Assembly: GCA_001466705.2 (NCBI GenBank)
Contig: LATX02000224.1
Coordinates: 1-64,000 of the forward strand
Direction: 5' to 3'
Source of the DNA: Moniliophthora roreri
Taxonomy: Eukaryota; Basidiomycota; Agaricomycetes; Agaricales; Marasmiaceae
DNA length: 64,000 nt
Shown here: positions 37,466-40,230 of the stretch, piece by piece
Position numbering within the stretch: the first letter of the stretch is position 1
How the letters are laid out: every line of letters starts with the position of its first letter
Position numbers and translations under genes: made by a program
The notes under the pieces: generated by a model
What the model saw: the letters and a program-made list of their open reading frames with translations, nothing else
Told to the model about the DNA's origin: nothing
The model's database searches: none

Positions 37466-40230
37466 TTACCATGCGCCGTAAGCACCAAACACCTTGGCAC
37501 CTTCACGCTTCTTGAAGGGTAAACCGTAAACGCCATCAGTAGGATGCGGGATCTTCGCCTCCCGCTTCATGAATGGCAAACCATAGATACCGAGGGCTGG
37601 AGGCTCAATTCTTGCCTCTCGCTTTTGGTATTGAGTGTTCGGCCAGTCGGCTTTGATAATATCTGCGGCCTGTGAGAGGAAGGAATCGTAAGCTGATGTA
37701 CTGCGTTACTCCAGTATAAGATGGGACGAACCTTCTCTGCGACAGCGATGACGGTGGGGTTGATAGCGGCAGATACCAGCATAGGTAGGACACCAGCATC
37801 AACGACACGGACGTTTGATAGACCGTAGACCTTTAGGCGGGAGTCGACGACACCTGATTGACAGCATCAGCATTCATAATCGGATCACAAGTCTGTAGTC
37901 TTACCGCCAAGCTCCCTAGAAGCCATAGCCGTAGTACCCGATGCGTGATTGTGCACAGTGACGTTGCTCTCGAGGAAACTGATAATGTTCAAATATGATT
38001 AGTATTACGCATAAGTAAAAGAGAGTATATCACCAACGTTTTAAAGTCTGCATCAGTAGTAACTTCAGGTCCAGGAACGGTCGGTACTTCAACCAAGTCG
38101 GAGAAGGGAGCAGTCGCAGCCCATGTACGGGTGAATTTCAGACCTTCGACGAGAACATCCTTGTCTGTACACATGAAAAACGTCAGCGAATAATTCCCAT
38201 CAAATAGGCTGCAGAACACACCAAGTTCATTCGACAAGAAACCCATATCAATAACAGGAGCTGCGAGAGGATCAGTGCTTGCGATGTGCTGAGAATCAAT
38301 TAGCGTCTACAGATGGTCCAAGAACAAGCCATGGAACTTACGACCGAGCCCCTGCTGAAGGGATGCATGGCAACGGGGACAACAGACACGTATGAAGCTC
38401 CAGGTTCGGCAGGCTTGGCGAAGTTTCCTGAAGGCACTACGGTGAAACCAATTGTTCCAGCTTTGCCTTCCACAGTAACATTTCTGTAGAAGCCGTACTG
38501 GGCCTTTTGGAGAGGAGTCAAGTTGTCGGAGGCGAGAACGGCATCAATCTTGGCAATGTATGATTCCATGTAAGAGTCGTTGGTGATACTGCGAAGGGGA
38601 ATGACACCATAGATGAGAGGCGTGAATGTGTAAGGACCAGTACGAGATTCCTCGCTAAACGAGAGCTTAATCATTGCTGTTGAATGCAATCTTCGAGTTA
38701 CTTACTATTGAGCCAGAGCCTCGTTAGCGTATGTCACGTTGTTACGAAGTTCGTCTGCGAAAACAGAGGTCAGAAGATATGAAAACTGTGAGATTTAGAT
38801 CATACCCAAAGTTAGAGTCCCATCGCGAAGCTTAAATTCAGTGATGACTAGTGGGTGGTCCTATAAAAGTCACAAATTCAGAGACAACTTTATCAAGTCA
38901 CCGCTAATGGTACCGCACCTGAAGGTTTTCTCCGATCTGAGGAAGGTCAACGACAGGAGTGATCCCGAGGGAGGTCAATAACTGTGCGTCGCCAACACCA
39001 GACAGCTCAAGAAGCTGAGGGGTCTTGACAGCACCTGGGACATAAATTGAACATGAAGGCATATTAAAGGGTGATGAAGAATATACCGGCAGCAAGGATA
39101 ACCTCTCTAGTAGCGTTCACAGTGTAATTCGCACCGTTGAAAGAGAAATCAACACCAGATGCCACGATTGAACCGTCAGTAGAATTCCCGAGGTTGATCC
39201 TGGTTGCTTGTGCGCCAGTCAAAAAGACAATGTTGGGGTCTTGCGAGTGAGGAGCAAAGTATTGAGGGCCAGTGTACGAACGGATGCCTTTGAGTGGGTC
39301 GACGTTTCGTGCGAGCAGAGGGAAGCCGGTAGAATCTCCGTCATCCTAGAGGACAAGAAACCAAGACAGTCAGGGACAGAGTCTCAAAAAGTGATAATAT
39401 GTGCATACGGGGTTGAAATTCAAAGGCAAGCCAAGGCTTTGGACGGCCTCGACCATTGGAACGTCCACGTCACTTGCCCAGTTGGGGTAGCTCAACTGTT
39501 TCAGAGGTTCAGTTTCGGCTGGTAGAGGAAAGAAGTTTGAGAACTTACTTGGATTGGGCCATCGTGACCGTGGGCGTCAGTGAAGCTTTGAGTAACTACC
39601 TGACCAGGGTACCAAAGAGTTTCGGGTTCGGTCCAGTTTTCAGACTTCTTGAAGTATGGAAGGAGGCCATCGAACGACCACTCATTCTCGTTACCATAGA
39701 CGGACGAGAAAGCATTGTAATCTTCAGCATGTCCACGTTGCCAAACCTGCAGATACGTCAACCAGGTGATGTCAGTCGAATTTTATCATGTGCTCACCAT
39801 GGCATTAGACCCACTCGACCCTCCGAGCATCTTCCCTCGCGAGATGAAAATAGAACGGTTTGCAGCTCCTGGTTGAGGAATGGTGCTCATCATCCAGTCA
39901 TAATCCGGATTTGACAAGTATCCCTGTCCTTGTGGGACGGCGATCTTGGCGTCGGAGACGTGATCCTGTCCAGCCTCGATGAGACCAACAGTGACATTAG
40001 GATCCTCAGCTAGACGTGTAGCCACAATGAGACCTGCAGTTCCTCCGCCAACGACGACGTAGTCGAATGTCTTCTGAGTGAAGGCGAGTGGGCTGAACTC
40101 TGCGTACCAGGATAAGCCTGTTGGAGTGTTCCATATTCTGAATGCACTTACCGACCATCCTCTTTTGAGGGTTAGGACGAGATGCCACAAGATGAGGCAG
40201 CAGGAGGAGTGCGAGTGACGCTGCGTACAT
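37466..40230 (-). CDS. Secreted GMC oxidase with C-terminal Kex2-type peptide repeats
   Basis: I could build a 14-exon model with 51-63 bp GT-AG introns and consistent phases (683 codons): 40230-40152, 40099-39798, 39746-39549, 39495-39409, 39345-39087, 39034-38919, 38860-38806, 38754-38706, 38654-38342, 38288-38222, 38164-38038, 37978-37905, 37853-37732, 37669-37466. There is a signal peptide, then NPQKR as a possible propeptide site. GGGTAG (44-49) binds FAD; GKMLGGSSGSNAM is the GMC signature; His562 (HASGT) and Asn607 (INPT) are the likely catalytic pair. The family normally ends near AADIIK. Here about 50 more residues follow, with KR sites at 632-633, 651-652 and 670-671. An aryl-alcohol-type or other extracellular H2O2-forming oxidase is likely; substrate unknown. 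Confidence 0.9.
37469..37624 (-). other. Kex2-type repeat tail of the GMC oxidase
   Basis: Three KR-E(A/G) sites are spaced exactly 19 residues apart. Between them lie two peptides ending G(I/V)YGLPF plus M or K; a shorter AYGAW end follows the third. Almost every shared codon differs synonymously between the repeats (Arg is CGA, CGG, CGT), so the peptide, not the DNA, is conserved. Cleavage after KR and trimming of EA would release ~15-residue peptides. Confidence 0.75.

What the first reader, a model, noticed from the sequence alone, without database searches (positions are those of the whole stretch)
37466..37669. GMC oxidase fused to a Kex2-type repeated peptide precursor
The catalytic domain ends normally (AADIIK), but ~50 residues follow. 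KR-E(A/G) sites recur with an exact 19-residue period (residues 632, 651, 670). The peptides between them share an I-x-P...G(I/V)YGLPF pattern. Codons for shared residues differ almost everywhere by synonymous changes, so selection is on the peptide. KR followed by EA is the Kex2/dipeptidyl-aminopeptidase arrangement of yeast alpha-factor and of fungal Kex2-processed repeat proteins. Carrying core peptides at the C-terminus of the modifying enzyme has a precedent in borosin methyltransferases. A secreted flavo-oxidase with such a tail may oxidise or release its own peptide.
Basis: partly seen in the sequence, partly recalled or inferred. Interest (0 to 1): 0.87.

Follow-up and report, generated by a model that had tools for sequence, protein, structure and literature searches.

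The report
Fungal oxidase carrying releasable peptide repeats
A secreted flavin oxidase of the cacao fungus Moniliophthora roreri ends in a short array of repeated, evolutionarily protected peptides flanked by the cut sites that fungi use to release pheromone-like peptides, so one gene probably supplies both an enzyme and small secreted peptides.

Summary
A 14-exon GMC oxidoreductase gene (complement 37466-40230, 683 aa) ends in KR-E(A/G) sites at residues 632, 651 and 670. The tail shares its terminal exon with the canonical AADIIKADW end, so it cannot be skipped alone. The genome is Moniliophthora roreri. Two further distinct intact paralogues, plus one near-identical copy that may be an assembly duplicate, all carry the tail; one has five units. 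The tail is under purifying selection: EAKIPHPTDGVYGLPFK is identical in four copies although 10 nucleotide sites vary. The encoded motif YG(L/F)P(F/L)xKR matched 10 times in 59.4 Mb, all in these genes. Nearest listed relatives (Mycena, Collybia) form a sister clade and end before the tail. No stand-alone relative was found.

Best reading: a Kex2-processed repeat (KEP) array grafted onto a secreted oxidase. Expression, cleavage and peptide function are inferred, not shown. Self-oxidation of the tail lacks support: the second GMC catalytic histidine is alanine, and window units 1 and 3 have no Ser/Thr. The nearest published precedent found is a Coprinopsis GH128 protein releasing one Kex2 peptide (PMC9769878). 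New variant of a known kind.

The parts
37466..40230 (-). GMC oxidoreductase gene, 14 exons (40230-40152, 40099-39798, 39746-39549, 39495-39409, 39345-39087, 39034-38919, 38860-38806, 38754-38706, 38654-38342, 38288-38222, 38164-38038, 37978-37905, 37853-37732, 37669-37466), 683 aa
   Evidence: Manual splice model, 13 GT-AG introns; Pfam GMC_oxred_N and GMC_oxred_C on the close M. roreri protein P0001
40159..40230 (-). N-terminal signal-like sequence and short pro-segment ending in a KR site (residues 1-24)
   Evidence: Read directly from the translation; no signal-peptide predictor was available
37466..37669 (-). Terminal exon: canonical GMC end AADIIKADWPN followed by the repeat tail and the stop
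37568..37624 (-). Unit 1, KR-EARIEPPALGIYGLPFM (residues 632-650)
37511..37567 (-). Unit 2, KR-EAKIPHPTDGVYGLPFK (residues 651-669); amino-acid identical in four copies in three genes
37469..37510 (-). Unit 3, terminal short unit KR-EGAKVFGAYGAW (residues 670-683)
41261..42953 (+). Divergent neighbour: FAD_binding_4 (berberine-bridge-type) oxidase with a signal-like start; its end (RLWPGGWKL) has no KR tail. Duplicated together with the GMC gene on contig C3
   Evidence: Pfam FAD_binding_4 E 3e-11 on one exon; translations; 83.6% nucleotide identity of window 40858-43827 to C3 21780-24728

Best explanation
The gene makes a secreted GMC flavo-oxidoreductase whose C-terminus has gained a Kex2-processed repeat (KEP-type) array. 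Inferred route: the polypeptide enters the ER and folds as a GMC enzyme; Kex2 in the Golgi cuts after the N-terminal KR and after each tail KR; Kex1 trims the basic residues; a STE13-like dipeptidyl aminopeptidase removes EA. The mature enzyme and two YGLPF peptides (about RIEPPALGIYGLPFM and KIPHPTDGVYGLPF) plus EGAKVFGAYGAW are then secreted together in fixed stoichiometry. The peptides, not the linkage sites alone, are what selection protects, so they probably act outside the cell as linear signals or host/competitor-directed peptides. Shown here: gene structure, sites, repeats, copy-number variation, purifying selection, restriction to these genes in this genome. Inferred: expression, cleavage, trimming, secretion, function of the peptides.
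For: Three KRE[AG] sites 19 residues apart, not reached in 200,000 shuffles. Two more distinct intact genes with the same tail, one with units A-B-C'-B-C, five in all. Low dN, high dS in the terminal exon; unit 2 invariant in amino acids with 10 of 10 variable sites synonymous. Unit-number change (105 bp, two units) between paralogues, as in repeat precursors. Encoded YG(L/F)P(F/L)xKR motif: 10 matches in the genome, all in these tails; reversed-pattern control 0. Processing enzymes likely present: two P_proprotein (Kex2-type) matches on C45, DPPIV_N (STE13-type) matches on C68. Kex2/STE13 processing of KEPs in Agaricomycetes and a Kex2 peptide from a GH128 enzyme are reported in PMC9769878 (passages and section 7).
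Against: No transcript, protein or peptide data. Only two full units plus a short one in the window copy, so it is a small array. All tailed sequences come from one species: the tail search found one protein cluster among 6 candidates. The last unit starts with EG, not the XA/XP that STE13 prefers. Selection could also act on a C-terminal propeptide.
Confidence: 0.7

Rival explanations
1. C-terminal propeptide: the tail helps folding, keeps the oxidase inactive or directs sorting, and is removed and discarded by Kex2.
For: C-terminal propeptides of secreted fungal enzymes removed by Kex2-type processing are known; PMC9769878 says so and cites the Caldariomyces chloroperoxidase propeptide (passages). 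The tail sits at the right end and is conserved.
Against: A discarded propeptide needs one cut site, not several; the conserved part is repeated inside each unit; unit number varies between paralogues; the 14 sister-clade proteins end without it, so the fold does not generally need it.
Confidence: 0.2
2. Borosin-like self-modification: the GMC domain oxidises its own C-terminal core peptides before Kex2 releases them.
For: Same order of parts as borosins, whose enzyme domain modifies a C-terminal core (abstract of PMC7878506 in a search listing). Two oxidase genes stand head to head.
Against: Second GMC catalytic His is Ala; units 1 and 3 in the window have no Ser/Thr; tyrosine is not a usual GMC substrate; tail-less sister enzymes with the same active-site change exist; no UstYa gene match on C3 or C123.
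Confidence: 0.05
3. The tail is an unprocessed structural or wall-interacting extension; the KR pairs are incidental.
For: No processing evidence is at hand; low-complexity C-terminal extensions occur on other secreted proteins of this genus (MpPR-1g, PMC3447762, passages).
Against: KR-EA/EG at every unit boundary, and apart from residue 23 no other [KR]R pair in the protein.
Confidence: 0.05

Closest known systems
Kex2-processed repeat proteins (KEPs) of fungi (Le Marquer 2019, PMC6339444; Umemura 2020, PMC7329392; Vogt 2022, PMC9769878)
   Same: Signal-like start, near-identical units separated by KR, EA dipeptides after KR as in STE13-type precursors
   Different: Here the array is short and sits behind a full catalytic GMC domain. 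In the passages I saw, KEPs are treated as precursors; the main texts of PMC6339444 and PMC7329392 hold neither 'GMC' nor 'oxidoreductase'. Their supplementary tables were not readable, so listing of this gene there is not excluded.
Coprinopsis cinerea GH128 protein 365456 (PMC9769878, section 7 read)
   Same: Secreted enzyme domain and a Kex2-excised peptide in one polypeptide; the peptide was detected
   Different: One peptide, unrepeated, N-terminal of a glycoside hydrolase; its authors say it cannot be classed as a KEP for lack of repeats
Ascomycete alpha-factor precursors
   Same: KR-EA spacers and short linear peptides
   Different: No enzyme domain; different peptides; PMC6339444 states that basidiomycete mating pheromones are only a-type. 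An STE2 receptor search found nothing but its control also found nothing
Borosin precursors (e.g. omphalotin type)
   Same: Enzyme domain first, core peptide at the C-terminus
   Different: Methyltransferase, not GMC; no evidence of self-modification here
Tail-less GMC oxidoreductases of Mycena and Collybia (P0002-P0011 and others)
   Same: Sister clade, up to 58-59% identity, same loss of the second catalytic His (A/T/P)
   Different: End at or within a few residues of AADIIKAxW, no tail

Membership tests
GMC oxidoreductase | GMC_oxred_N and GMC_oxred_C domains | tested here: met
   P0001 (93% identical to the window protein): E 3.9e-32 and 3.4e-30, both above cut-off
GMC oxidoreductase | Second catalytic His/Asn near the C-terminus | tested here: not met
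   Ala at that position; among 118 of 120 parsed homologues H 80, A 17, P 14, T 4, V 3. Usual in active members, not part of the family definition
Kex2-processed repeat protein (KEP) | Signal peptide for secretion | tested here: inconclusive
   Hydrophobic start MYAASLALLLLPHLVASRP read directly; no predictor available
Kex2-processed repeat protein (KEP) | Repeated peptide cores flanked by dibasic Kex2 sites | tested here: met
   Two full units and one short in the window, five in C3c
Kex2-processed repeat protein (KEP) | Cores released in the organism | not testable with these tools
   Needs peptide mass spectrometry
STE13-type precursor | XA or XP dipeptides after KR | tested here: met
   EA after two of three KR sites in the window (EG after the third); EA after three and EG after two of five in C3c
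Dikaritin (UstYa-dependent RiPP) | UstYa (DUF3328) genes close to the precursor gene | tested here: not met
   23 UstYa matches in the genome, none on contig C3 or C123
Borosin | N-terminal methyltransferase domain acting on the C-terminal core | tested here: not met
   The N-terminal domain is GMC

The most novel reading that the evidence does not exclude
An enzyme-borne peptide array in which the oxidase and its excised peptides work as one unit: either the GMC domain (alone or with the head-to-head FAD_binding_4 oxidase) oxidatively modifies the tethered units on the way through the ER, an oxidative counterpart of borosins in the secretory pathway, or enzyme and peptides are a paired secreted system acting on the same host or competitor target.
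Probability: 0.1. Interest if true: 0.9.

Novelty: new variant of a known kind. Interest (0 to 1): 0.6.

Why it matters
KEP surveys look for repeats in secreted proteins; this case shows that conserved Kex2 arrays can hide behind a full catalytic domain, where annotation stops at 'gmc oxidoreductase'. It links enzyme and peptide dosage in one gene, offers a recent origin to study (tail absent from the sister clade), and gives defined peptide sequences in a fungus whose secreted molecules matter for cacao.

Tried and rejected
Stand-alone precursor as source of the tail: searching the 102-residue five-unit terminal exon gave 12 candidates, none at E <= 10, and the own-genome search with the window tail at E <= 10 found only the known GMC places. 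This method needs shared exact 5-residue words and similar length, so a diverged source is not excluded.

Looser motif TAYGGNYTNCCNYT alone: 168 matches (77 + 91) against 260 (120 + 140) for the reversed control, so uninformative; only the form extended to xKR was specific.

Other GMC genes with other KR tails: of 71 GMC_oxred_C matches I read 30 loci with a crude frame reading; 25 gave a row and most of those frames run into an intron, so their true C-termini were not read. No second tailed group was seen, but this is inconclusive.

Dikaritin-type cyclisation: no UstYa match on the two contigs. STE2 receptor: none, but the control rang nowhere, so uninformative. Pfam on the tail: nothing. Expression: PMC3948071 lists several gmc oxidoreductases with changed transcript levels (passages), but its gene ids could not be tied to this gene. 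Chance or neutral run-on tail: rejected by shuffles and by synonymous-change excess.

Full report
What is there. On the minus strand, window 40230-37466, lies a gene of 14 exons with 13 GT-AG introns, coding for 683 residues. It starts with a hydrophobic signal-like stretch and a KR at residue 23. The body is a GMC oxidoreductase: its close M. roreri relative P0001, 93% identical, matches GMC_oxred_N and GMC_oxred_C above cut-off. After the usual GMC end AADIIKADW the reading frame goes on for about 50 residues with KR-E(A/G) at 632, 651 and 670. The terminal exon 37669-37466 holds both AADIIK and the tail. In the nearest listed relatives the protein ends right after this stretch (for example AADIIKAEWKL in Mycena polygramma, AADIIKKDWHI in Collybia nuda). 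The tail is therefore an in-frame extension of the last exon and not a cassette that splicing could drop alone.

Which organism. The tail search returned one protein cluster, named gmc oxidoreductase of Moniliophthora roreri, on a contig of 182,486 bases; contig C3 of the window's own assembly has exactly that length. The genome has 59,427,881 bases in 154 contigs.

More copies. The own genome holds the tail at C123 (the window) and at three places on C3. C3b (15229-12466) and C3c (21411-18541) give complete open models with the same 14 exons; C3b has a GC donor at its last intron, where the NCBI protein P0001 carries three extra residues (ARS) before AADIIK. C3a is 99.9-100% identical to C3b over long stretches and has a one-base N inside; it may be an assembly duplicate, so I count three distinct genes. 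C3c has five units: A (EARIEPPSLGVYGLPFM), B (EAKIPHPTDGVYGLPFK), C' (EGTKVFGAYGLPLE), B again, and C (EGAKVFGAYGAW); the window and C3b have A, B, C. The difference is 105 bp, one B plus one C'. The two B units of C3c differ at 8 of 19 codons, all synonymously, while the window's B differs from each at 5; so the five-unit state may be old, with loss elsewhere. This is a reading of few sites.

Selection. Window vs C3b: body dN 0.030, dS 0.170; terminal exon (67 codons) dN 0.033, dS 0.293. Window vs C3c: body 0.030, 0.183; first 53 codons of the terminal exon 0.042, 0.353. C3b vs C3c: body 0.020, 0.092; terminal exon part 0.036, 0.297. The excess of dS in the terminal exon over the body is unexplained; exchange between units is one possibility, small numbers another. 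Counting nucleotide changes from the first KR on gives 10 synonymous and 2 non-synonymous (C3b, 53 codons, p 1.2e-4) and 9 and 3 (C3c, 39 codons, p 1.2e-3); C3b vs C3c also 9 and 3 (p 1.2e-3). For unit B in four copies, 10 of 10 variable sites are synonymous, p 4.6e-6. These p values treat sites as independent. Introns diverge by 14-17%, the tail by 8-9%, other exons by 6%.

Specificity. The DNA pattern for YG(L/F)P(F/L)xKR has 10 matches in the genome: 2 each in the window gene, C3a and C3b, 4 in C3c; the reversed control has none. A shorter form without xKR is common and uninformative. No Pfam family matches the terminal exon, and the 102-residue C3c version found no protein at E <= 10 among 12 candidates.

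Relatives. The full-length search scored 7995 candidates, 2629 of them at E <= 1e-50, and listed 120. After the AE[KRQ] motif, 118 of the 120 could be parsed; median C-terminal remainder 10 residues. Three of 118 have two or more [KR]R there: P0001, and two two-domain Tilletia proteins in which the remainder is a whole second domain. A tree of 47 rows (45 of the 120, plus the window protein and C3c, all tailed rows cut before the tail) puts the three Moniliophthora rows together (100/100) within a 17-row clade (100/100), with 14 tail-less Mycena/Collybia rows as the other branch (96/98). The tail thus most simply arose on the Moniliophthora branch. Moniliophthora perniciosa and other close species were not represented among the listed hits.

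Active site. In the alignment to a solved GMC enzyme (7vkd), the first catalytic His is kept (NHASGT) and the second (CGHL) is Ala (SAAI). Among 118 parsed homologues the second position is H in 80, A in 17, P in 14, T in 4, V in 3; every Mycena/Collybia row of the sister clade is non-His. So the change is older than the tail. Whether these enzymes are active oxidases is open.

Surroundings. Head to head with the GMC gene lies a FAD_binding_4 (berberine-bridge-type) oxidase gene, 41261-42953, ending RLWPGGWKL without KR tail. This pair is duplicated: window 37331-44498 is collinear with C3 18387-25529 at 73-90% identity. The rest of the window includes retrotransposon remains at about 5-16 kb and 23-28 kb. 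UstYa, needed for dikaritin cyclisation, has 23 matches in the genome but none on C3 or C123. Kex2-type P_proprotein (2 matches on C45) and DPPIV_N (5 exon matches on C68) are present.

How it probably works. By analogy with KEPs, Kex2 would cut after each KR, Kex1 trim the basic residues, and a STE13-like enzyme remove EA (mechanism from passages of PMC6339444 and PMC9769878). That would yield the enzyme and peptides such as RIEPPALGIYGLPFM and KIPHPTDGVYGLPF. Shown: anatomy, repeats, selection, restriction. Inferred: expression, cutting, secretion, function. I give 0.7 to the precursor reading and 0.2 to a discarded propeptide.

Literature. Eight searches showed no report of a GMC enzyme with a Kex2 repeat tail; titles and abstract starts were seen, and passages of seven of the papers taken together with section 7 of PMC9769878. 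The nearest precedent is the GH128 protein in PMC9769878, which carries a single Kex2 peptide before the enzyme domain. The library lacks most subscription papers and supplementary tables could not be read, so prior listing of this gene as a KEP is not excluded.

Noticed in passing
window 33357-35534 (-): Likely two neighbouring berberine-bridge-type oxidase genes or fragments, with a near-identical stretch (33874-34305 vs 34307-34737, 94.9%) joined at a single N at 34306; perhaps an assembly artefact. Only a weak, sub-cut-off FAD_binding_4 match on one exon.
   Followed up: partly
window 5412-16910 and 22910-28005: Gypsy-type (chromodomain) retrotransposon copies with gag, reverse transcriptase, RNase H and integrase matches.
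   Followed up: no
window 28787-31361: 1287-base stretch repeated at 100% identity across a single N at 30074; looks like an assembly duplication.
   Followed up: no
C3 5407-16331 (L006, L007): Near-perfect tandem copy (99.9-100%) joined at single N bases 7608 and 10690; C3a may be an assembly duplicate of C3b.
   Followed up: partly
P0098 and P0107 (Peniophora), P0035 (Artomyces): GMC homologues ending in HDEL or RQEL, resembling ER-retention signals (resemblance recalled).
   Followed up: no
window 61025-61672 (+): Peroxidase_2 (chloroperoxidase/peroxygenase family) exon, E 1.2e-15.
   Followed up: no
window 48137-49555 (+): DUF6535 protein, E 1.4e-44, common in Agaricomycetes by recall.
   Followed up: no
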